Shown one piece after another: positions 9,792 to 25,136 of a stretch of DNA of 64,000 bases (within the stretch, counting starts at the first letter, position 1; each line of letters opens with the position of its first letter). The position numbers and the translations under genes are program-made. Source of the DNA: Guptibacillus hwajinpoensis. Lineage in GTDB: Bacteria; Bacillota; Bacilli; Bacillales; Guptibacillaceae. Under the pieces are notes generated by a model that did not search any database, was not told the DNA's origin, and saw only the letters and a list, made by a program, of their open reading frames with translations. The stretch spans positions 124,001-188,000 of the forward strand of contig NZ_JAIVAE010000006.1 of NCBI RefSeq assembly GCF_020171785.1. Direction: 5' to 3'.

Positions 9792-9929
9792 TTAGTAAGT
9801 CATTTGCGTGAGAAAGGCAATAGCCGCTCCAATGACGATAGCAGACACAGGTAGCAAAAGATAAATCATCTTCTCCTTACGCTGTCTTCGATATTGGATT
9901 TCTTCAGGCGTTAGCCATGTTTCTTTCAT
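9792..9929 (-). CDS. Small single-pass membrane protein, 45 aa
   Basis: A 45-residue protein: charged N-terminal half (MKETWLTPEEIQYRRQRKEK) followed by one transmembrane helix. The ATG at 9929 has a strong GGGGGAGATTTGATT site on the minus strand; the longer frame to 10040 has none. A gapless alignment with the minus-strand frame at 10454-10612 gives 21 identities over 45 residues, so the two are paralogues. I know of no function; the PEE-x-x-Y and RKEKM motifs define the pair. Confidence 0.75.
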   Translation of the reverse strand: MKETWLTPEEIQYRRQRKEKMIYLLLPVSAIVIGAAIAFLTQMTY

Positions 9930-10363
9930 AATCAAATCTCCCCCTGGTTCTTGCTGAAATCGCAGCGGAGGCCGTATTCGGCAGCTGGCTGACTGTCGGA
10001 TAAAACAGTCCGTGAAGTCCCTATAGCTTTGCGTCATCACTTTTCAATGATTTTGCCATTCTCGTACGATTCGAACATTTATAAGTAGTCATCAAGTAAA
10101 CGGTGTCATGAAAAAGTAAAAATTGTCGAAAAATGACTTCAATTCTAAGTATAACCTATTCTGTTTACCGTGTATATTGGGAAAATGCTGATAAACTGCT
10201 TTCCTTTATGAAGATTTTGTAAAGAAGGTTTCCCAATGTCGGATGGAATCGTCTCGATTAAAATAATAATCGTTTTACAGTAAATACGATCGGCTTTTTC
10301 ACCCATTTACGCATGAAAAAATCATGATAGATAAGACTAAAAGTGGAAGGGAGGTTGGTCTTA
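9930..10363. other. 434-bp gap without a convincing gene
   Basis: AT-rich intergenic DNA between the 45-aa minus-strand gene and the 36-aa plus-strand gene. It must hold divergent promoters for both. I see no structured RNA or ORF with a ribosome site. Confidence 0.5.
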
Positions 10364-12015: not shown

Positions 12016-14253
12016 TTGAAACTTTTGACGTCACTTTTGGTTGGCATTTTAGCATTTTCTTTGTCGATGCATGGTGTGCAGGCAGCGGGAGAAACAGTTA
12101 CCGTTAAACTAGTAAACTATGTGAAAGATACGACGGTTTTAAAGTTCAATGTAACAGGAAGTTATCAAATTCAAGGTAGTGAAATTGAAATTGAAAGTTC
12201 CAACGCGGGGGAGTACAGTGTCAAAGCTGAATCAGGCGATGTGGTGCTTTACCGAGGAAACACAAAGTTAGCTAACTTTGGGAGTGCAATGACGCTTGTA
12301 CCTACCATCACAAATGCGATGGATAGCTTTGTCGCAATCGGTGATAAAAGGTATCTAGGTGAAATGAAATTTACGGTTGATGGGAAATACATTCGTCCCA
12401 TTAATACACTTCCGATGGAAGAATATTTAAAAGGCGTAGTGCCTAGTGAAATGCCAGCTTATTGGGGAACGAACGGAGGAATGGAAGCTTTAAAAGCACA
12501 AGCAGTTGCGGCGAGGACATTTGCATTTCCTCGAAAAGATAACTTGACGGATAGCCAGTCTAGTCAAGTTTATAAAGGCTATGATTGGTATTCAACTACA
12601 AATATTGCCATTAATGAAACTGCAGGAAAAACACTAAAAAGTGGTGACACGTACATAGGTGCTTTTTATTCCTCTACAAATGGTGGTATGGTGATGTCGA
12701 ATACAAATTCGTGGGGGAGCAAGTTAATTCCTTACCTTCAAACAAAAGCCGATCCGTATGACGCTAAACTATCGCCATACGATAGTTGGAATTATACAAT
12801 AGGGAAAAAACAAATCGACACTGGTCAATTGGATTTGAAAAATCCTGAATCCTGGTGGACTAAGACGAATGAACTGAGCTCTGATGCGGCAGAAATTACG
12901 AATATGAAATCTTGGCTCAAAAAAGAAGGTAAAATCAACTCAACGGATGAAATTAAAATTACAGAAATAACGAATCTTACTTTTACTCTTCCACCATTTA
13001 CTTCTAATGATATTTTAAAAGGAAGCATGACATTCAAGTACTTCCTCAAAAAAGATAGTGGTTTTGATAAAGATGAAAAAGGTTTGTTAAAAGAGCATAC
13101 GATGAAGATTGAAGATACATCCTATAATCTTCGCTTTATGATTGGCACTTCAATTATGAAAAGTCCTTATATCCAACAAATTGATGCAAAATCCGACTCT
13201 TATGTAGTTAATGGAAGTGGCTTTGGACATGGGATTGGCATGAGTCAATATGGTGCTTATCAGCAGTCAAAAGAAGGTCGCACATTTGATGAAATCTTAT
13301 CTTTCTATTATCCGAATACGAATTTAGTGCAAGAAGAAACGACGATTACATCGGAAAGATTGTATGGAAAAAGTCGTTATGATACGAGTGTGGCCATTTC
13401 GAAATACGGGTGGCAGAACCATTCTGAAGTTGTTGTAATTGGTCGCGGAGATGTTGCCATTGATGCTTTAACGGGGAGTGTACTTGCCAAAAAGTACAAT
13501 GCGCCATTGCTATTAACACCTTCTAACGCTTTACAAGAAAGTGTGGAACAGGAAATAGATCGCCTTCAGCCGAAGAAAGTTTATATTCTAGGCGGTACAG
13601 GTGCTGTTTCTGAAAATATCAAATCGACTTTAGAGAAAAAGCTTTATGTACAAGAAGTGGAGCGTGTCAGTGGAAAGGACCGCTACGCGACTGCCGTAGA
13701 AATTGCTGAAGAAGTGGGCGGGTTTAATCAGGCGATCCTTGCTTCAGGAAATGACTCTTCACCAGATGCTCTATCAATTGCTTCTTATGCAGCTGCAAAA
13801 CAAATTCCAATCTTGCTAACCGGTCAAAAGGCGTTGAGTGATTATACAAAGAACTATGTAGAAACCACCAACATTACACAGGCAACCTTAATAGGTGGCA
13901 CAGGTGCCATTTCTGATTCTATTAAAAGTGGTCTTGAGAATTCAGGAGTCAATACACTTCGAATTTCAGGAAAAGATCGCTATTTAACAAGTGTCGAGGT
14001 TGCAAAAACATTAGACTTTGAAAACTCGAACTTATTCTTTGCTAATGGTGATGTATTTATTGATGCACTGCCGGGCTCTTCTCTGGCAGCAGCCATGGGT
14101 GCTCCAGTGATTTTAACTCAAAAAGAGAAATTACCAGCAAGTGTAAGTCGTTATCTTGATGAAAACAAAGCTGCCCAAAGTATGTATTTGCTTGGGGGAA
14201 CGGGAGCCATATCTGAAGGCGTTATGAACGACATTTTTCAGAAGATAAACTAA
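12016..14253 (+). CDS. Secreted SpoIID/LytB-domain protein with three CWB2 repeats
   Basis: A 745-residue exported protein starting at TTG behind TTAGGGGGAAAAGA. A signal peptide covers about residues 1-23. A SpoIID-type peptidoglycan lytic transglycosylase domain follows, seen in YLKGVVPSEMPAYW (with the conserved Glu), LKAQAVAARTFAF and GSGFGHGIGMSQYGA. From about residue 447 to the end there are three cell wall binding 2 repeats, each opening with a GKxRYxT motif and closing with GGTGAxS. The protein probably cuts glycan strands while held to a wall polymer. It is monocistronic. LytB/SpoIID family function is known; wall anchoring through CWB2 is inferred. Confidence 0.92.
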   Translation: MKLLTSLLVGILAFSLSMHGVQAAGETVTVKLVNYVKDTTVLKFNVTGSYQIQGSEIEIESSNAGEYSVKAESGDVVLYRGNTKLANFGSAMTLVPTITNAMDSFVAIGDKRYLGEMKFTVDGKYIRPINTLPMEEYLKGVVPSEMPAYWGTNGGMEALKAQAVAARTFAFPRKDNLTDSQSSQVYKGYDWYSTTNIAINETAGKTLKSGDTYIGAFYSSTNGGMVMSNTNSWGSKLIPYLQTKADPYDAKLSPYDSWNYTIGKKQIDTGQLDLKNPESWWTKTNELSSDAAEITNMKSWLKKEGKINSTDEIKITEITNLTFTLPPFTSNDILKGSMTFKYFLKKDSGFDKDEKGLLKEHTMKIEDTSYNLRFMIGTSIMKSPYIQQIDAKSDSYVVNGSGFGHGIGMSQYGAYQQSKEGRTFDEILSFYYPNTNLVQEETTITSERLYGKSRYDTSVAISKYGWQNHSEVVVIGRGDVAIDALTGSVLAKKYNAPLLLTPSNALQESVEQEIDRLQPKKVYILGGTGAVSENIKSTLEKKLYVQEVERVSGKDRYATAVEIAEEVGGFNQAILASGNDSSPDALSIASYAAAKQIPILLTGQKALSDYTKNYVETTNITQATLIGGTGAISDSIKSGLENSGVNTLRISGKDRYLTSVEVAKTLDFENSNLFFANGDVFIDALPGSSLAAAMGAPVILTQKEKLPASVSRYLDENKAAQSMYLLGGTGAISEGVMNDIFQKIN

Positions 14254-16695: not shown

Positions 16696-16762
16696 GTTCG
16701 CACACTCCTATTCTAGTTAAACTATGATTAGTATAGCGTTATGGAGGGAGATGGGGCAAATA

Positions 16763-16790
16763 AAAACCCGGCAGAATTGAGCCGGGTTTT
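16763..16790 (-). terminator. Terminator of the regulator-peptide operon
   Basis: Perfect 10-bp stem AAAACCCGGC / GCCGGGTTTT, 8-base loop. On the minus strand it is followed by TTTATTT and lies 5 bases past the peptide gene stop. Confidence 0.85.
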
Positions 16791-16794
16791 CGTA

Positions 16795-16932
16795 TTAGAT
16801 ATGAATTTCAGTTTTAGATGGGCTTGAGTCAGGTACTCTGTCGTGAGAATCAGGTACTCTGTCGTGGTTACCTAGAGTAACAACTCCTACTAAGCTAGTA
16901 ATAAGTAGTGCATTTACAATTAACTTTTTCAT
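16795..16932 (-). CDS. Secreted signalling-peptide precursor with tandem HDRVPDS repeats, 45 aa
   Basis: A 45-codon gene 14 bases downstream of the RNPP-type regulator and on the same strand, with AAAGGGAG before the ATG. The product has a Lys-Lys start and a hydrophobic signal segment (about residues 4-21), then two exact tandem copies of HDRVPDS (residues 23-29 and 30-36) and the tail SPSKTEIHI. The DNA of the two copies differs only at two synonymous third positions. This is the layout of Phr, PapR and NprX precursors: exported by Sec, cut outside, re-imported by Opp, and bound by the TPR regulator. The inner DRVPD resembles the PhrI pentapeptide DRVGA. Function is inferred from context; the ORF itself is clear. 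Confidence 0.8.
   Translation of the reverse strand: MKKLIVNALLITSLVGVVTLGNHDRVPDSHDRVPDSSPSKTEIHI
16829..16866. repeat. Tandem direct repeat, 21-bp period
   Basis: Two identical 17-bp blocks (16829-16845 and 16850-16866) with a 21-bp period inside the peptide gene. The period equals seven codons and produces the doubled HDRVPDS. Confidence 0.95.
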
Positions 16933-16946
16933 GTTTTTCTCCCTTT

Positions 16947-18209
16947 CTAATTCATGATTTTTTTCCTGGCATCGTTCGCTAACCTAAAATAAAAACTTGA
17001 ATTTTTATATTGGCCATTATTAAAATAATGGTCTGCCAGCATTTCACCGTACTCTGAAACATAGTACCAACGTGTTTTTTCCTCAAAGTATTTAACTGCA
17101 TCTTTAAGGATTAACTCTTGATTTTCACTCTGCTTGTTACTAAGTTTTAAAATCAAGATTTTAAAATGGTGGATATATTCTAGGTACTCTGTTTTTGTAA
17201 CTAGCACCATACCATCATTAATTGATTTACGAGCGAGATCAAAGTTACCGCTTTTAATATACTCTGAAGCAATTAAATATAAAGTCTTAGCGCGATCTTC
17301 AATTTCGTGCACTTCACTATTTTGTAAAGCTAATTGATAGTATTTTAAAGCCAAATCCGATTCGTTTTGGCAAGAGTATACATACCCAAGGTCATGGTAA
17401 ATAATACTCTTAAGTCGTTTATCATTAAAAGATTCTGCATATTTTTGTGCATTTTGGAAGTGATGTTCGGCTTCTCCATAATTTAAGATAACTCTATTGT
17501 TTACTCCTAAAAGAATTTCAGTGTCTGAAGCTCTTTTGAAATTGTATTCTTTATTAAACATTTCAAGGCATTTTATTGCAAGGTTATTAGATAAAGTAAT
17601 TTGACTAAGACGATTGTGTACAAGTGCTTGTTGATAGTAAAATTCTGCCCATTCTGCAGAATTTGATTTCATCGAAGTAAGAAGAAAATGAGCTTTTTTG
17701 TACTGTTCACCAGCTTCTTTAAATTTACTATTTTGGTAGTAGTATAAGCCTAAAAAGTAAAAATAATAGAATTCAAGTTGCTCAGATAGTCTTTCTTGTA
17801 CGTGATACAACCTCTCAAGAATATCATTCGCTTTATCAGTTTCTCTAAATAAAATATGATACCTAAACGATAAAAGAAGATATTTCGTCAGCATATCAGG
17901 ATCTTCCACGCCGTCAATTTCTTCATCTATCAGTTTCTTGTAACTAACAACTTCCTCAAAGTTTCTTAGACGCATTTCTTTGTACCAGGAGTCTAAATCA
18001 TTGTGAAGCCTGTTCATTTTATCCTCATCATCAACCTGATCTAGAGAAACGCCTAACTCTTTACAAAGATGTCCAACAAGTTCTTCACTTGGCTGGGCAA
18101 GACCGTGTTCGATTTTACTTAAATACGGAATAGAACAGATTCCGGAAGCGAGTTGTTCTTGCGTGATGCCTTTCATCTGCCTGAAGTATCGGATTTTTGC
18201 TCCAATCAT
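16947..18209 (-). CDS. RNPP-family quorum-sensing regulator (HTH + TPR)
   Basis: A 420-residue cytoplasmic regulator. Residues 1-60 are an XRE-type helix-turn-helix (KIRYFRQMKGITQEQLA, then IPYLSKIEHGLAQPS). The rest is a series of about eight to nine tetratricopeptide-like helix pairs rich in Tyr, Phe and Leu. This is the domain order and length of NprR and, with a shorter TPR part, PlcR; Rap proteins lack the DNA-binding domain. The TPR superhelix binds a short re-imported peptide, most likely the product of the gene immediately downstream. It is transcribed divergently from a 57-aa gene and from the CWB2 protease beyond it, which are candidate targets. NprR activates a protease gene in Bacillus cereus group strains, an analogous arrangement. 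Confidence 0.9.
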   Translation of the reverse strand: MIGAKIRYFRQMKGITQEQLASGICSIPYLSKIEHGLAQPSEELVGHLCKELGVSLDQVDDEDKMNRLHNDLDSWYKEMRLRNFEEVVSYKKLIDEEIDGVEDPDMLTKYLLLSFRYHILFRETDKANDILERLYHVQERLSEQLEFYYFYFLGLYYYQNSKFKEAGEQYKKAHFLLTSMKSNSAEWAEFYYQQALVHNRLSQITLSNNLAIKCLEMFNKEYNFKRASDTEILLGVNNRVILNYGEAEHHFQNAQKYAESFNDKRLKSIIYHDLGYVYSCQNESDLALKYYQLALQNSEVHEIEDRAKTLYLIASEYIKSGNFDLARKSINDGMVLVTKTEYLEYIHHFKILILKLSNKQSENQELILKDAVKYFEEKTRWYYVSEYGEMLADHYFNNGQYKNSSFYFRLANDARKKIMN

Positions 18210-18256: not shown

Positions 18257-18274
18257 ATTCTCAGAAAAGAGAAT
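18257..18274. promoter_or_regulatory. Inverted repeat in the regulator promoter
   Basis: ATTCTC-N6-GAGAAT, 48 bases upstream of the regulator start. It is a possible autoregulatory operator; no binding data. Confidence 0.35.
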
Positions 18275-18371
18275 AGTTTTGAGGTTGGGAAATATAAAAA
18301 GAATTTGCATGATTATCACGCTAAATCCGAACGATGTTTCCCAATATTTCATAATGCAATGATCGATACTT

Positions 18372-18697: not shown

Positions 18698-20746
18698 TTG
18701 AAGAAGAGTAACATTTTTCTTGTTATTTTCACATTGAGCTTTATTTTGCTTTTAACACCACAAGTTGAAGCAGAAGAAACTGTCAATGTGATTGTGAAAT
18801 ACTCAGAATCTAGTGATCGAGTGAAGGCTCAGTCGATTTCCAGTCAGTTTGATACGATTGAAGCACCGAAGTCAGAAAGTAAAAAGCTTATAAAAGAATT
18901 GGAAAGTCTACCGAATGTGCAATACGCTGAAGAAGATGTACCTGTTTATTTAATGGGTTCAACGCCTGTAAATGATCCTGGATATACTAAGCAAATGTCC
19001 TCTTTTCAGGAAATGTCTGTTGAACAAGCATGGATGAAATATGTACGATCTGATGAAATCACTGTTGCCGTTTTAGATACCGGTGTCGATCTCGATCACC
19101 CGGAATTAGCTAGTAATCTTGCTAATGGAATTAATCTCGTAACTCCTTCTAAAACACCAGACGATGAAAATGGCCACGGTACGCACGTTGCGGGGTTGAT
19201 CGGTGCAGAAACGAATAATGGAGTGGGGATATCTTCTATCTCCCGCGGGGTCAAGATCATGCCGATTAAAGTGATGGAAGGTACGACAGGACAAATGTCC
19301 ACAGTCATTCAAGGCATTGAATATGCCGTTTCTCATGGAGCAGATGTGATTAATTTAAGTCTTGGTACATACAGCAATATGAAAGCAATGAGTGATGTGA
19401 TTCAAATGGCGGCTGAGAGTGGGGTAGTCGTTGTGGCAGCAGGTGGAAATGATAATCAAAATCGGGTTATTTATCCTGCCGCATATAAGTCGACGATCGC
19501 AGTAGCATCAACCCAAACGGGAACGAATGAAAAAGCCTCATTCTCAAATTGGGGAGCAGAGATCGATCTTCACACTCCAGGTACGGATATTTATAGCACG
19601 TGGCTAAACTCATACGAAACAGATAGTGGGACGAGTATGTCCACAGCGCTTGTAAGCTCAGCAGCTAGCATGATTTTACAAAACAGTCCATTTTTAACGA
19701 GTGCTCAGGTAAAAGATGTGCTCACTTCGAGTACCGATCCAATCAGTAAGTTGGAGGGAATGGGAAGTGGACGCTTGAATGTCTCTTCCGCTTTAGAATA
19801 CGTTGAAACGAAAAATAGAATTTATGGCAAAACGGCCGTTCACACAGCTGTTGCGGTTTCTAAGCACGGTTGGGATAAATTAAATCAAAAACAGGTTACC
19901 TTAAATGGTGAAAACATGGATGGGAAATTCGTGATTTTAGCAAGTGGCTTAACCTTTCCAGATAGTCTAGCAGCAGCCCCTTTATCGTCTTATCTAGATG
20001 CGCCGATATTGCTTCAGCAAACGAATGCTTTAGCTGAGGCTAATATAGAAGAACTAAAGAGACTAAAGGCTACTCACGTTGTTATTGTAGGAGGATCTGG
20101 TGCTGTATCCGAAGTAGCAGAGAATGAATTAAAGCAATTAGGTATTCACACACTTCGATTATCAGGAAAAGATCGATATGCTACTGCAGTTGCTATTAAT
20201 CATGCTATTCCTTTTGAAACAGAAGAAGCAATGATCGTTTCGGGAGAAGATTTTCCTGATGCTCTTTCCATTGCTCCATACGCTGGAAGGTATGACTACC
20301 CCGTATTATTTGTTCAAAAAAACAAGGCGCCAGCCGTTGTGAAGTCTTATCTCAATTCTAAAGAAATTCGTCATGCTTATGCCATAGGTGGTACAGGGGC
20401 GATGTCTAACGAAACGATGGAATCTCTCCAGATTCCTTACAATAGAATTAGTGGAGAAGATCGCTACGCAACGAATTACAAGGTTATTAAACAGTTTGGT
20501 TTAGAGGAAGAATCACTGTATATTGCCACTGGTACGAACTTCCCTGATGCATTAGTGGGAGGAGCTCTGGCTACTAAAGTAGAAAGCTCAGTTATGTTAA
20601 CTCATCCACGAAAAATGCTAGCTAGTGTGAATGAAGAATTAACCTATTTAAGAAATAAAGGATTCCAAGATTATCACTTTCTTGGAGGTTATGGTGCTGT
20701 TTCTCCCCAAATTGCCTGGAAAATTGATAAAAAACTACTGTACTAG
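18698..20746 (+). CDS. Secreted subtilisin-like serine protease with three CWB2 repeats
   Basis: A 682-residue exported S8 peptidase starting at TTG behind TTTAGGGGGAAAAG. A signal peptide (about 1-25) and an inhibitor_I9-like propeptide with the EEDVPVYL cleavage region come first. The catalytic triad is Asp127 (AVLDTGVD), His160 (NGHGTHVAG) and Ser313 (DSGTSMSTALV); the oxyanion Asn is in AAGGNDN. The active-site serine context is GTSMSTAL instead of the usual GTSMATPH. Residues 372-682 are three CWB2 repeats that should hold it to the wall. It lies next to the peptide-regulator cassette and is a plausible target. Confidence 0.92.
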   Translation: MKKSNIFLVIFTLSFILLLTPQVEAEETVNVIVKYSESSDRVKAQSISSQFDTIEAPKSESKKLIKELESLPNVQYAEEDVPVYLMGSTPVNDPGYTKQMSSFQEMSVEQAWMKYVRSDEITVAVLDTGVDLDHPELASNLANGINLVTPSKTPDDENGHGTHVAGLIGAETNNGVGISSISRGVKIMPIKVMEGTTGQMSTVIQGIEYAVSHGADVINLSLGTYSNMKAMSDVIQMAAESGVVVVAAGGNDNQNRVIYPAAYKSTIAVASTQTGTNEKASFSNWGAEIDLHTPGTDIYSTWLNSYETDSGTSMSTALVSSAASMILQNSPFLTSAQVKDVLTSSTDPISKLEGMGSGRLNVSSALEYVETKNRIYGKTAVHTAVAVSKHGWDKLNQKQVTLNGENMDGKFVILASGLTFPDSLAAAPLSSYLDAPILLQQTNALAEANIEELKRLKATHVVIVGGSGAVSEVAENELKQLGIHTLRLSGKDRYATAVAINHAIPFETEEAMIVSGEDFPDALSIAPYAGRYDYPVLFVQKNKAPAVVKSYLNSKEIRHAYAIGGTGAMSNETMESLQIPYNRISGEDRYATNYKVIKQFGLEEESLYIATGTNFPDALVGGALATKVESSVMLTHPRKMLASVNEELTYLRNKGFQDYHFLGGYGAVSPQIAWKIDKKLLY

Positions 20747-20969: not shown

Positions 20970-23900
20970 ATGACATTTAAGAAAAAGTTTATTACGGTTT
21001 TTGCTGGCGCGACCTTATTGGCATCATCGTTCTCTAACGTTGGATACAATCCTGATGTAGCGGAAGCTGCCTTACAAGAAACAAAGAAGTTTAAACCAGC
21101 TATTTCACAAGAGATTTCAGCTCTTGCTTTTAGTGATGCTGCGGTACAAGAGTTGATTGTTGTCACAAAAGGAAAGAAAGACCTTTCTTCGCAACTTGAA
21201 AAAATGGGTGTTAAAGTACTTGATAACCATAAGAACTATGTCTACTTAACAGAAATTCCAACTAATAAAGTAATGGAAGTTTATGGACTTGATGACGTAG
21301 CGTCACTTGGTAAAAACGGAACGGTTGAATTGGAAAAGACATTCGATGACCCTGAAATAGCACCTATTAATGAAGCTGCAGAAGAAGTAGTTGGCCCCCA
21401 AACAGAAGAAACACATGATGCCACAGGTGTGGATGAATTCCATAATAAATATGATGGCTCTGGAACGAGAGTCGCCATTATTGACTCGGGTCCAGACCCA
21501 GGTCATGAAGCTTTCACTGAAAAGCTTGCTGAGGGATACTTTGGTAAATCTAAAATCGTCGGTGTGCATGATTACACGATTGGAGACCAAACGAATGAAA
21601 GAGATTCAGATTTTCCACTTGCTGAAGGCGATGTGATTTTCGACAACACAGTTGATGAGGGGGATTCGTTTACTGTTGGAGAAGATACATATAAGACAAA
21701 CGGGATTGATGCCTCGGATGACGAGTATCATTTCGGCTTTCTGGCGCCTGACCTGAATTCAGGTGACCTAAATGCCGATGGTGAAATGACGGAAGACCAC
21801 GATGAGGATGTAGAAGGTAACGATGCAGATAAATTTGGTGTGCTAATGGTTGATGATAAAGTTTACATTGATAAAGATAATGACATGGACTTCGCTGATG
21901 AAATTCCTTATGCGAACAATCAAGCTGGTACATTTGATGTCAATGTAGAGGATGAGTTGGTTGGAGCTAATTTCCGCATCAATTCATTAGATTCAGAGAA
22001 TCCATTTGTGAATATTTTCTTTGATGTCAACGGACATGGCACTCACGTATCGGGTATAACAGCAGCTAATGGGCCAGCAAGATCGAACGAAACAGGAGCT
22101 GTTGCTAAAGATGGTGTTGCGCCAGGAGCAGAGCTAGTAGGTCTTAAAGTATTTAAAGCTGAAGGTGGAGCGGCTAGTTATAGCATCATGTCAGCGATGG
22201 TAGATGCTGCCCTACCAGAATCTCTAGGCGGGTATGACGCAGATGTTGTTAATATGAGTCTAGGTTCTTTACCTGATTTAAATGACGGCACAGATGCAGA
22301 TGACGAGTTAGCAGATCTATTATCTGAAGAATTTGGTACGATGTTTGCTATGTCAGCAGGAAACGAAGGACCTGGGGCTGATTCAGTAGGTTCACCAGGA
22401 ACGAGTACAGCTTCGATCTCTGTAGGTGCACACATGGATGAAGAAATGTGGGCAACCGAATATGACGCTTATCCGTTTGGAAAGAACGCTGATGGCACGC
22501 CAAAAGAAGGGGACGGCCTTTGGTACTTCTCTTCTAATGGTCCAAGGGAAGATGGTATGCAAAAACCTGATATTGTTGCGCCAGGAGCATCATTTGCTTC
22601 TTATCCAGCACAATTAGGTAATTATGCAGTACTTCAAGGTACAAGTATGTCAGCACCTTACGTAGCAGGCGCACTTGCTCTTTTGAAACAAGCTACTGAA
22701 AAAGACAGGGTTCCTTTTGATTACGAATCAGCACGTGAAGCGTTAATTCAAACTGCGCAGCCACTTGAAGGGTATGAACGTTCTCAGCAGGGTGCTGGTT
22801 TAATTGATATCCCTGCTGCCTATGAATATTTGAAAAACAACTTTATTAATGATGTAAAAGAAGTGAATGTCCAAGTTTACCACGGTGAAAAAGTTTCAGG
22901 TGGTCCAGGGCTATACGTAAGAAATCAAGAAATACCGGAAAAAGTAGAAGTTCTTATTGAAAACCCTACTGATGAAACAAAAGAATTAACAATTAAGCCA
23001 AGTGAAAGTTGGTTTACTCCATCTAAGAAGGCGATTACGCTTAAAGCGGGTCAAAGTGAGAAAATTACTGTTACTTATGATAAGGACCAGCTTCAGGTTG
23101 GTAGAAACGAAGGAACGCTAGTCATTGATGATAAGGCGACGGCTTATGTTGAAGCGCGCTCTTATCAAACGATTATTGTTGGAGAAGAATTTACTTCAGA
23201 AAACAAATATCGTTTTAGTGATCAAGGAGAAGTACAATCTTCTAAAACCGAACACTATTACTTTGACGTAAAGCCAGGAATGGAAGAAATCCGTTTCGCC
23301 CTTTCTGCTCTTCAGGAAAATGGTGAATATCAAGGTCGAGTAAGAATGTTAGTACATGACCCGGATGGTAAGCAAGTAAGTGAATATCAAGGATATGCCG
23401 GTTATGGACCAAAAGCGTCTTCCCTTAAAGTAGAAGAAAATGTTTTTGAAAGTCCTAAAGCCGGTGTGTGGGAAGTAGCGGTCTACGGTACGATTGCTCC
23501 TGAAGAAGGTAAAGAAGTAAACAAATTTAACTTCGAAGCTTTTGTACAAGGTGTTGTAGCTACTCCAGGCGAAGTTGACCTTGGTTCTGTCGCTCCAGGT
23601 ACAAAGACAACAAAAGAAGTGAAATTCGAAAATTATCTTTCAGGTGCTAAAAAAGTAAAAATCGAAACTGGCGATTTTAGTAAGGCAGAATCAAGTAAAA
23701 GTCGCATTGAAGTTCCAAATAAAGATTATTATTTGGAAGAGTTGAAGCTCGAAAATAATATTTCTTTAGAGGTAGCAACTTCGAATCCGAAAGATCCAGG
23801 TGATGACGTTGATTTAGAATTTTATAAGAAAACAAAAGATGGGTATGTACCGGTAGCGTCTTCAGGTGATGCTTCTTCTGATGAAAAAGTAAATATGAAA

Positions 23901-25136
23901 GCGCTAGAAGATGGTACTTACCTGGTAGCTGTTTTTGGTTATTCGTCTAGTGACGGAAAAGCAACAGAAGTTGATCTTACAATAACGGAAGAACGAGTTC
24001 TAAATCCTGGTGAAGAAGGTCTGGGTGAACTATCCGCTACTAATAAAACTTTCGATCTAGGTATTGGGAAATCACTTAAAACCGATGTGAAGATTACAAC
24101 ACCAGATGCATCTGGTGATTACACAGCGGGCGTATTCTTAAAGGATGCTGTTACTGACGAAGTTCTTTCAATTCTACCTGTATCTGTTGATGGCGGAGTA
24201 GTGGATGTTATTAAAGGTTCAGACCGCGAAGCGACTGCTATTGAAGTATCAAAAGAGATGTATCCTGATGGTTTCACTGAGGAAGATAGTAAAACTGTGG
24301 TTATCACGACTGGATACGACTTCCCAGATGCTTTATCAGCTGGTCCACTAGCAAGTGCGTATGAAGCACCAGTTCTTCTTGCAGGACCTAAAGGGAAACT
24401 GTCAGAAAAGGTTAGATTAGAAATCTCACGTCTAGGTGCTGAAAATGCCGTAATTGTTGGTGGTACAGGTGTTGTCTCCGACGATGTACTTCTTCAACTT
24501 GCTGAGCTTGGAATCAGCACAAAAAATGTTGAACGTTTATCTGGTAAAAGTCGTTTCGATACGAACTTAGCCATTGTAAACCACTTACAAGAAAAGAATG
24601 GTTATGTAGGAAAAGGCGTGTTTCTTGCGACTGGTATGAACTATGCAGACGCACTTAGCGCTGCTGGTATTGCTGGCGAGAAGCAAATGCCAATTGTGCT
24701 TACAGATGGAAAGAAATTATCTAAAGAAGCAAAAGAAATTCTTAAAGGTGAAGCTGTGTATGTTCTTGGAGGTACAGGAGCAATTTCTGACACTGTTTAT
24801 AATGAAGTAGAAAGCATTGCTTTTGATACGATGAGATTGAAAGGGAAAAATCGTTATGGTACTTTAGCAGCGATTCAAGAGGAGTTTGCTGACGCTACGG
24901 ATACGTTATATGTAGCAAGTGGTCAAACTTTCCCTGACGCACTTTCTTCAGCACCACTCGTATCTATGAACAAAGGAACGCTAGTTTTGGTTCAAAAAGA
25001 TGATGTTCCAACAGAAGTTGAGTCTTTCCTAACAAAATATCTGTATACGAATGATATTAAATCTGTGAAAGTATTAGGTGGAAATGGAGCAGTAAGTGAA
25101 GTAGCGAAAGACGAGTTGCAAAAGTTAGTCAAGTAA
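20970..25136 (+). CDS. Very large secreted S8 serine protease with three CWB2 repeats
   Basis: A 1388-residue exported protease. It has a signal peptide (about 1-35), a propeptide, and the catalytic Asp172 (AIIDSGPDPGHEAF), His356 (NGHGTHVSG) and Ser559 (GTSMSAPYVAG). The Asp-to-His distance is about 184 residues against roughly 30-40 in subtilisin; the insert is very acidic and has calcium-loop-like segments (DLNADGEMTED, DKDNDMDFADE). A long Asp-His insert is a feature of tripeptidyl-peptidase II-like subtilases. Beta-rich domains fill residues 600-1075, and three CWB2 repeats occupy 1080-1388. It ends with a strong terminator and is probably monocistronic. Confidence 0.92.
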   Translation: MTFKKKFITVFAGATLLASSFSNVGYNPDVAEAALQETKKFKPAISQEISALAFSDAAVQELIVVTKGKKDLSSQLEKMGVKVLDNHKNYVYLTEIPTNKVMEVYGLDDVASLGKNGTVELEKTFDDPEIAPINEAAEEVVGPQTEETHDATGVDEFHNKYDGSGTRVAIIDSGPDPGHEAFTEKLAEGYFGKSKIVGVHDYTIGDQTNERDSDFPLAEGDVIFDNTVDEGDSFTVGEDTYKTNGIDASDDEYHFGFLAPDLNSGDLNADGEMTEDHDEDVEGNDADKFGVLMVDDKVYIDKDNDMDFADEIPYANNQAGTFDVNVEDELVGANFRINSLDSENPFVNIFFDVNGHGTHVSGITAANGPARSNETGAVAKDGVAPGAELVGLKVFKAEGGAASYSIMSAMVDAALPESLGGYDADVVNMSLGSLPDLNDGTDADDELADLLSEEFGTMFAMSAGNEGPGADSVGSPGTSTASISVGAHMDEEMWATEYDAYPFGKNADGTPKEGDGLWYFSSNGPREDGMQKPDIVAPGASFASYPAQLGNYAVLQGTSMSAPYVAGALALLKQATEKDRVPFDYESAREALIQTAQPLEGYERSQQGAGLIDIPAAYEYLKNNFINDVKEVNVQVYHGEKVSGGPGLYVRNQEIPEKVEVLIENPTDETKELTIKPSESWFTPSKKAITLKAGQSEKITVTYDKDQLQVGRNEGTLVIDDKATAYVEARSYQTIIVGEEFTSENKYRFSDQGEVQSSKTEHYYFDVKPGMEEIRFALSALQENGEYQGRVRMLVHDPDGKQVSEYQGYAGYGPKASSLKVEENVFESPKAGVWEVAVYGTIAPEEGKEVNKFNFEAFVQGVVATPGEVDLGSVAPGTKTTKEVKFENYLSGAKKVKIETGDFSKAESSKSRIEVPNKDYYLEELKLENNISLEVATSNPKDPGDDVDLEFYKKTKDGYVPVASSGDASSDEKVNMKALEDGTYLVAVFGYSSSDGKATEVDLTITEERVLNPGEEGLGELSATNKTFDLGIGKSLKTDVKITTPDASGDYTAGVFLKDAVTDEVLSILPVSVDGGVVDVIKGSDREATAIEVSKEMYPDGFTEEDSKTVVITTGYDFPDALSAGPLASAYEAPVLLAGPKGKLSEKVRLEISRLGAENAVIVGGTGVVSDDVLLQLAELGISTKNVERLSGKSRFDTNLAIVNHLQEKNGYVGKGVFLATGMNYADALSAAGIAGEKQMPIVLTDGKKLSKEAKEILKGEAVYVLGGTGAISDTVYNEVESIAFDTMRLKGKNRYGTLAAIQEEFADATDTLYVASGQTFPDALSSAPLVSMNKGTLVLVQKDDVPTEVESFLTKYLYTNDIKSVKVLGGNGAVSEVAKDELQKLVK

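What the first reader, a model, noticed from the sequence alone, without database searches (positions are those of the whole stretch)
16795..18209. Unannotated quorum-sensing cassette: RNPP regulator with a tandem-repeat peptide pheromone
Seen: a 420-aa HTH+TPR regulator is followed after 14 bases by a 45-aa gene with a Sec-type signal segment, then two exact copies of HDRVPDS and a short tail. The two copies differ only at two synonymous positions, and one terminator ends the unit. Known: NprR, PlcR and Rap systems use this order of regulator then exported peptide, and mature peptides are 5-8 residues; Phr peptides often carry a basic residue at position 2, as in DRVGA (PhrI). Inference: DRVPD, DRVPDS or HDRVPDS is the signal, doubled to raise yield per precursor or widen processing.
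Basis: partly seen in the sequence, partly recalled or inferred. Interest (0 to 1): 0.88.

Follow-up and report, generated by a model that had tools for sequence, protein, structure and literature searches.

The report
Cell-density signalling switch with doubled pheromone
A spore-forming bacterium carries a known type of cell-to-cell signalling pair, a receptor gene followed by a small gene that encodes the same short peptide twice, and a shared 60-base DNA mark suggests that the receptor switches on secreted protein-degrading enzymes.

Summary
On the minus strand a 420-aa HTH+TPR regulator (16947-18209) is followed after 14 nt by a 45-aa secreted-type ORF (16795-16932) with two HDRVPDS copies and a terminator. 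All 15 family genomes have both genes, with 1-3 copies of H[DE][RK][VFL]P[DEQ]S. Of 92 homologues examined, 79 have such an ORF, 38 with repeats, up to 9 copies. The receptor is NprR-like (best profile hit NprR; tetramer residues matched; peptide contacts mostly not). Repeated NprR propeptides are published, so the cassette is a new member of a known kind.

Added here: a candidate operator, TTGGGAAA-N44-TTTCCCAA. Fourteen genus genomes hold 75 sites; 72 have N44 though N30-60 was allowed; reversed control zero. Of 397 genomes, all 60 with two or more sites have such a receptor. Sites precede M4 proteases, subtilases and a c-di-GMP-riboswitch gene (one in this window). 113 of 202 receptor-positive genomes lack the exact operator. 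I found no published form in the searches named; one key paper is not held. Binding, maturation and activation are untested.

The parts
16947..18209 (-). Receptor/regulator gene, 420 aa: N-terminal HTH (about residues 2-60), RapH_N-like region and TPR superhelix
   Evidence: HTH_3 E 2e-10, RapH_N E 6e-7, TPR_2 E 8e-10; best PDB hit of the family profile NprR 4gpk, E 4e-48
16795..16932 (-). Pheromone precursor gene, 45 aa, starts 14 nt after the receptor stop
   Evidence: counterpart in 15 of 15 orthologues
16870..16932 (-). Signal-type segment, residues 1-21 (MKK + hydrophobic core), no cysteine
   Evidence: sequence; hydropathy 2.7; no signal-peptide predictor was available
16846..16866 (-). 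HDRVPDS copy 1 (residues 23-29)
16825..16845 (-). HDRVPDS copy 2 (residues 30-36)
16755..16794 (-). Intrinsic terminator of the unit
   Evidence: -18.8 kcal/mol, z -4.9; not listed by the simple scan
18285..18344 (.). Candidate operator TTGGGAAA-N44-TTTCCCAA in the divergent intergenic region upstream of the receptor gene
10177..10236 (.). Second candidate operator in the window, upstream of the riboswitch-led 45-aa gene
9977..10067 (-). c-di-GMP-I riboswitch (RF01051) between the second operator and its gene
   Evidence: 71.5 bits, gathering 35, E 4.7e-12
9792..9929 (-). Small gene (45 aa, MKETWLTPEEIQY..., hydrophobic C-terminal half), predicted target of operator plus riboswitch
   Evidence: similar genes beside the operator in L152, L168, L180
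18698..20746 (+). Neighbouring divergent secreted-type subtilase with CWB2 repeats; possible target or pheromone-maturing protease (inference)
   Evidence: Peptidase_S8, CW_binding_2
20970..25136 (+). Second neighbouring subtilase with PPC and CWB2 domains; same inference

Best explanation
This is an NprR-like quorum-sensing cassette of the RRNPP kind. The 45-aa precursor is exported, cut outside the cell into one or two identical peptides within HDRVPDS, re-imported, and bound by the TPR domain of the adjacent receptor. By analogy with NprR-NprX, the peptide-bound receptor forms a multimer and binds a long-spacer operator, TTGGGAAA-N44-TTTCCCAA, at its own locus and at a small regulon: in this genome an M4 protease, an uncharacterised gene, a small gene under a c-di-GMP-I riboswitch and (one mismatch) a LysM protein; in relatives also subtilases, urocanase and others. 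At many targets the operator abuts the place expected for a -35 element, which suggests activation. Shown: gene order, conservation, repeat, receptor family, the operator sequence, its fixed spacing and its association with the receptor. Inferred: secretion, maturation, binding, multimer, activation. Speculative: unliganded receptor restraining Spo0F, and the proteases maturing their own pheromone.
For: Downstream secreted-type ORF in 15 of 15 orthologues, with the heptapeptide conserved and changing together in both copies (HDRVPDS x2 in four genomes, HDKVPDS x2 in three). 79 of 92 homologues examined have such an ORF, 38 with repeats. A profile of 15 receptors hits NprR best (4e-48), then RapI (7e-43). 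NprR Y223 and F225 (tetramer) align with Y222 and F224. Operator: both boxes upstream of 15 of 15 orthologues, with one base changed in G009 and one extra spacer base in G001; 75 sites in 14 genomes, 72 with N44, reversed control 0; 60 of 60 genomes with two or more sites have a receptor match (Fisher 1.7e-20). The receptor is the only RapH_N protein found in its genome. Targets: M4 protease and subtilases. Best -10-like hexamer most often at +23 after the operator (about 12 of 32 sites, next best 3).
Against: No experiment; no usable structure (AF2 model pLDDT 60). The single receptor sequence hits RapI, not NprR, best. Of the NprR peptide-pocket residues named in PMC4970707 only R126 is kept (R122); W167, H201, Y165, N306, D309 and R343 are F163, R200, S161, D305, K308 and a Tyr, read by eye; the dimer residues N407 and Y410 are Ser and Phe. 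13 of 92 homologues showed no small ORF under the filter. 113 of 202 receptor-positive genomes lack the exact operator; 6 of 95 operator-positive genomes lack a receptor match; the reversed control is positive in 17 of 397 genomes. With two mismatches allowed the own genome gives 8 sites against 4 in the control, so the three two-mismatch sites count as chance. At receptor genes of two other families the operator lies 18-21 nt before the start codon, which would suit repression. Species and orthologous sites are not independent. The order sample holds no SKPDIVG-type NprX, so the operator was not checked at the classical NprR target.
Confidence: 0.84

Rival explanations
1. Receptor and peptide are a signalling pair, but the operator belongs to a different transcription factor that controls the receptor gene and protease genes as well.
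For: No binding data; 6 of 95 operator-positive genomes have no receptor match, all with a single site; 113 receptor-positive genomes lack the exact operator.
Against: All 60 genomes with two or more sites have a receptor match; the operator lies upstream of receptor genes in several families; a 60-bp dyad with a long spacer fits a multimeric TPR regulator; a neutral protease (nprA) is a known NprR target.
Confidence: 0.13
2. The 45-aa product is not a pheromone but another small secreted peptide (antimicrobial, adhesin-like or cell-wall peptide) that happens to lie behind the regulator.
For: No maturation or binding evidence; 13 of 92 homologues showed no such ORF under the filter, though one of them (L025) has one with DELYPDP x3 that the filter missed.
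Against: Adjacency is kept in 79 of 92 homologues; the short repeat is the conserved part; peptide sequence changes with receptor lineage; same layout as published RRNPP pairs.
Confidence: 0.05
3. The pair signals, but the doubling has no function of its own: copy number drifts, and one copy suffices. (Compatible with the best explanation.)
For: Orthologues with one copy (G005, G012, G014) or a decayed second copy (G002, G013).
Against: In seven of the eight two-copy orthologues the copies are identical in protein although 11 of 14 codons vary across species; up to 9 copies elsewhere. In two phage Rap systems both copies are produced and active (PMC11343458, abstract and passages).
Confidence: 0.3

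Closest known systems
NprR-NprX of Bacillus thuringiensis
   Same: HTH plus TPR receptor followed by a small exported precursor; Y223/F225 tetramer residues matched; a neutral protease among the targets (nprA reporter in PMC4970707, passages; that nprA encodes a neutral protease is recalled)
   Different: Pheromone HDRVPDS-like and doubled, not SKPDIVG; most NprR peptide-pocket residues differ; no published operator sequence could be compared
Repeated NprR propeptides of the RRNPPA survey (PMC9765709, section 7 read, other passages seen)
   Same: Several copies of the mature peptide in one precursor: 17 of 17 atypically large NprR propeptides; up to six copies across AimR, NprR, PlcR and Rap
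   Different: Neither this genus nor its peptide is named in the parts seen; six peptide strings gave 0 papers
Phr105 and Phr3T duplicated propeptides (PMC11343458, abstract and passages)
   Same: Two pheromone copies in one precursor, cut by extracellular proteases
   Different: Rap receptors (no HTH), encoded by phages
AimR-AimP arbitrium (PMC6458997, passages)
   Same: RRNPP regulator on an inverted-repeat operator with an unusually long spacer
   Different: AimR: 6-bp boxes, 25-bp spacer, binding lost with peptide; here 8-bp boxes, 44-bp spacer

Membership tests
RRNPP receptor-propeptide pair (criteria as listed in PMC10075063, passages) | Receptor of 250-500 aa with TPRs | tested here: met
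   420 aa, TPR_2 and TPR_12 above cut-off
RRNPP receptor-propeptide pair | Adjacent gene for a small propeptide | tested here: met
   45 aa, 14 nt downstream; 15 of 15 orthologues
RRNPP receptor-propeptide pair | Propeptide exported by Sec | tested here: inconclusive
   basic start and hydrophobic core by hydropathy; no signal-peptide predictor run
RRNPP receptor-propeptide pair | Mature peptide binds the TPR domain | not testable with these tools
   needs a binding assay or complex structure
NprR-NprX | HTH domain plus Rap-like N-terminal TPR region and TPR superhelix | tested here: met
   (HTH_3, RapH_N, TPR above cut-offs)
NprR-NprX | Closer to NprR than to Rap | tested here: inconclusive
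   profile: NprR 167.7 bits, RapI 150.4; single sequence: RapI 68.5, NprR 43.3; no tree built
NprR-NprX | Tetramer-interface residues Y223 and F225 | tested here: met
   Y222 and F224 in the alignment (numbers)
NprR-NprX | Spo0F-contact residues D107, Y118, E188, Y223 | tested here: inconclusive
   D103, F115 (RapH F58 position), E186, Y222 are candidates; alignment uncertain by one residue at some of them
NprR-NprX | NprX-pocket residues R126, Y165, W167, H201, N306, D309, R343 | tested here: not met
   one of seven kept (R122), by eye; so I call it NprR-like, not NprR; a different pheromone may explain it
NprR-NprX | Peptide-dependent activation of a neutral protease gene | tested here: inconclusive
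   exact operator 75 nt before an M4 gene in this genome; expression not tested
Rap-Phr | No HTH domain | tested here: not met
   HTH_3 present
PlcR-PapR | PlcR-type regulator | not tested
   no PlcR reference compared; no PlcR among the PDB hits
AimR-AimP | AimR family profile | tested here: not met
   PF22871 not among the matches at E <= 1

The most novel reading that the evidence does not exclude
NprR-like receptors of several families in this order share a dyad operator, TTGGGAAA-N44(+-1)-TTTCCCAA, with box centres 52 bp apart (about five helical turns) and an A/T centre. It abuts the -35 position of secreted-protease genes, so a receptor multimer reads DNA with a fixed long-range ruler. 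In the window's genus the same operator also drives a conserved gene whose leader is a c-di-GMP-I riboswitch, so cell density and c-di-GMP would be combined on one transcript.
Probability: 0.73. Interest if true: 0.68.

Novelty: new member of a known kind. Interest (0 to 1): 0.52.

Why it matters
The cassette itself is a well-supported member of a studied kind. Its value is that a candidate operator can be read straight from the genomes, so the direct regulon of many uncharacterised receptors becomes a list that can be tested. It points to secreted proteases as a main output, the enzyme class that matures such pheromones in B. subtilis (PMC11343458, passages), hence a possible positive loop, and to a junction between quorum sensing and c-di-GMP. 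The series of 1, 2 and 3 copies within one family is a natural experiment on why pheromones are duplicated.

Tried and rejected
Rejected: Rap (an HTH is present), AimR (no profile match), chance repeat, spurious ORF. Led nowhere: AF2 model of the receptor from four sequences (pLDDT 60, pTM 0.45), so no fold search was made; plasmid and phage searches found only relatives under 60% identity, the 5 phage records with partial matches only; the genome-contig scan found 3 loci but gave names (Pseudalkalibacillus hwajinpoensis, Bacillus sp. NTK071, Alkalihalobacillus macyae); NprX pattern 0 of 397 genomes; promoter scan 9 found against 7.8 in shuffles; text search for the octamers and NprR-operator terms hit 2,139 papers, of which only the 25 listed were seen, none showing an NprR-operator term.

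Limits: the reference window:16947-18206:- used in several calls leaves out the start methionine; residue numbers here are for the full 420 aa. Genome counts and control-positive genomes were typed from the tables; the totals 202 and 95 agree with those tables. Operator lengths were counted by hand. The list of sites is truncated by the tool. Homologue loci: 95 taken, three dropped before the count (L026, L027, L028: weak or partial matches), 92 counted. Target regions fetched: in the genus 39 regions holding 40 of the 75 sites, plus one region with a one-mismatch site; the other 35 sites (13 of them at receptor genes) were left out; outside the genus 18 regions with 21 sites, picked by me from the truncated list.

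Full report
Observation. The window lies at G000:C6:124001-188000 of a 4.24-Mb genome. The closest named relatives found are Pseudalkalibacillus hwajinpoensis (receptor 95% identical), Bacillus sp. NTK071 (84%) and Alkalihalobacillus macyae (83%). The 420-aa regulator, the 14-nt gap, the 45-aa ORF and the two HDRVPDS copies with two synonymous differences are as described, on the minus strand. A strong terminator hairpin follows, although the simple scan did not list it. A 7-aa exact repeat was reached in 0 of 20,000 shuffles.

Conservation of the pair. All 15 genomes searched in the family, the window's own included, have a full-length orthologue (55-100% identity), and all 15 have a small secreted-type ORF 11-18 nt downstream. 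Copy number: two identical copies in seven (HDRVPDS in four, HDKVPDS in three), two near-identical in one (HDRFPDS/HDRVPDS), three in two (HEKFPES, HERFPDS), one in three (HEKFPQS), and one plus a decayed second in two (HDRVPDS, HDRLPES). The change R to K appears in both copies together. Over eight gap-free orthologues the repeats vary in 11 of 14 codons but 3 of 14 amino acids; the signal segment in 19 of 21 codons and 11 of 21 amino acids. Beyond the family, 202 of 397 genomes of the order have a receptor match at E <= 1e-25. I took 95 homologue loci, dropped three weak or partial ones, and of the remaining 92 found a secreted-type ORF starting within about 60 nt of the receptor stop in 79; 38 of these carry repeats, 2 to 9 copies. 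76 of 79 hold [DE]-x(1,2)-P after residue 18, against 54.5 expected from shuffles, so that motif alone is weak evidence. The filter missed at least one ORF (L025, DELYPDP x3).

Receptor family. Pfam gives HTH_3, RapH_N and TPR. The single sequence hits RapI best; a 15-sequence profile hits NprR best (167.7 bits against 150.4 for RapI). NprR Y223 and F225, of which F225 is described as needed only for the DNA-binding tetramer (PMC4970707, passages), correspond to Y222 and F224 here. Spo0F-contact positions may correspond to D103, F115, E186 and Y222, with an alignment uncertainty of one residue at some of them. Of seven residues of the NprX pocket or its lock, read by eye from the printed alignment, R126 alone is kept (R122); W167, H201, Y165, N306, D309 and R343 are F163, R200, S161, D305, K308 and a Tyr. 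The dimer residues N407 and Y410 are Ser and Phe (RapF also has Phe at the second). I therefore call it NprR-like and do not file it as NprR itself. No tree was built. It is the only RapH_N protein found in its genome.

Candidate operator. Alignment of the regions upstream of the 15 orthologues showed two boxes, TTGGGAAA and TTTCCCAA, 44 bp apart; G009 has TTAGGAAA and G001 has one more spacer base. A search of the 14 genus genomes for the boxes with any spacer from 30 to 60 found 3-9 sites in every genome, 75 in all; by hand count 72 are exactly 60 bp long, two are 59 and one is 67; the reversed control pattern found none. In 57 distinct 60-bp operators of the held loci the centre is TTAA-like with hardly any G or C, and an A/T tract lies on either side. 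In 397 genomes of the order (spacer 40-49) 95 have a site, in 37 genera; 89 of the 95 have a receptor match and the other 6 have one site each; all 60 with two or more sites have a receptor match (Fisher 1.7e-20). Of 75 sites listed before the list was cut, 65 are 59-61 bp long (45 are 60) where 56-65 were allowed. The reversed control is positive in 17 of 397 genomes. 113 of 202 receptor-positive genomes lack the exact operator. Allowing two mismatches in the window's own genome gives 8 sites against 4 in the control, so only the four exact sites and the one-mismatch site are taken seriously. Species are related, so the P values overstate independence.

Targets. In the 40 genus regions fetched (41 sites, one with a mismatch) the gene downstream of the site is an M4 protease at 10 sites, a subtilase at 13, an uncharacterised gene of 301-322 aa at 5, an O-methyltransferase at 5 (four of them on the other side of the uncharacterised gene's site), and a urocanase at 4 (one representative of each group run against Pfam, two for the subtilases; the uncharacterised gene has no Pfam match). 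One site lies upstream of an AimR-like gene (L173). In G000 the sites are at the receptor, the M4 gene, the uncharacterised gene, the riboswitch-led gene and, with one mismatch, a LysM gene whose counterpart in G014 has an exact site. In 18 regions from other families (21 sites) 13 sites precede a subtilase-like gene by resemblance and three a histidine-kinase-like gene; Pfam was run on ten proteins there: nine suspected subtilases are all Peptidase_S8 (one of these reads towards its site) and one is a histidine kinase. At least one of those sites, inside a 409-aa ORF (L201), looks like chance. In most target groups the operator is followed at once by TACAAA, TAACAA or a similar string, and the best TATAAT-like hexamer starts most often 23 nt after it (about 12 of 32 sites; next best 3; the sites within a group are related), as expected if the inner box abuts the -35 position of an activated promoter. 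At receptor genes of two other families the operator lies 18-21 nt before the start codon instead, which would suit repression.

Second operator and riboswitch in the window. The site at 10177-10236 is followed on the minus strand by a c-di-GMP-I riboswitch (9977-10067) and a 45-aa gene (9792-9929). Six relatives searched for it (L152, L158, L168, L172, L179, L180) all have a c-di-GMP-I-type riboswitch at the same place. Next to the mismatched site in G000:C15 a c-di-GMP-II riboswitch leads the divergent gene.

Neighbourhood. In 6 of 8 relatives examined the cassette sits beside two divergent secreted-type subtilases; in L120 the locus is rearranged and in L124 different. NprE, Bpr and, for PhrA and PhrC, subtilisin-type proteases are implicated in pheromone maturation in B. 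subtilis (PMC11343458, passages), so proteases controlled by the receptor could feed back on the signal. This is inference.

Against the literature. Repeated NprR propeptides are published: 17 of 17 atypically large ones, and up to six copies across four subfamilies (PMC9765709, section 7); function of duplicated copies has been tested in two phage Rap systems (PMC11343458, abstract and passages). NprR-NprX is described as a tetramer suggested to bind two DNA sites (PMC4970707, passages); AimR uses two 6-bp boxes with a 25-bp spacer (PMC6458997, passages). I found no NprR operator sequence in the listings of searches (listings only, 43 cut at 25 of 2,139), nor in the passages of PMC3325205 and PMC4970707; the 2013 NAR structural paper is not held and may contain one. 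The cassette is therefore a new member of a known kind; the operator and its pairing with c-di-GMP riboswitches are the part that may be new. Confidence in the best explanation and in the novel case was lowered slightly (0.85 to 0.84, 0.75 to 0.73) on rechecking the pocket residues and the two-mismatch control.

Noticed in passing
window 9792-10236 (minus); also L152, L158, L168, L172, L179, L180: Candidate operator followed by a c-di-GMP-I-type riboswitch and a small gene; kept in six relatives, in four of which (L158, L168, L179, L180) a urocanase gene lies on the other side of the operator.
   Followed up: partly
L151 (G000:C15:29300-35300): A one-mismatch operator lies between a LysM protein gene and a c-di-GMP-II riboswitch that leads a 214-aa gene resembling an HD-domain protein (resemblance by eye, not tested).
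   Followed up: partly
window 18257-18274: Between operator and receptor start there is a perfect ATTCTC-N6-GAGAAT repeat, exact in 10 of the 15 orthologues aligned, resembling a CodY-type box (motif recalled, not tested).
   Followed up: no
window 12016-14253, 18698-20746, 20970-25136: Three large secreted-type proteins cluster around the cassette; two are subtilases with CWB2 repeats, the first looks like a SpoIID-type protein with similar repeats (by eye, not tested).
   Followed up: partly
L173 (G005:C2:90400-96400): An AimR-like gene (PF22871, E 1.6e-58) has the same operator 84 nt upstream of its ORF: one peptide-sensing regulator perhaps under another.
   Followed up: no
L192, L194, L197: Outside the genus the operator precedes a PAS-histidine kinase gene (Pfam on L194; the other two by resemblance), a possible tie to a phosphorelay.
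   Followed up: no
propeptides at L044, L046-L050, L052, L063: In these many-copy precursors many repeat units end in a string like L-x-L-A or L-A-A just before the next pheromone, as if each copy carried its own signal-peptidase-like cut site (by eye).
   Followed up: no
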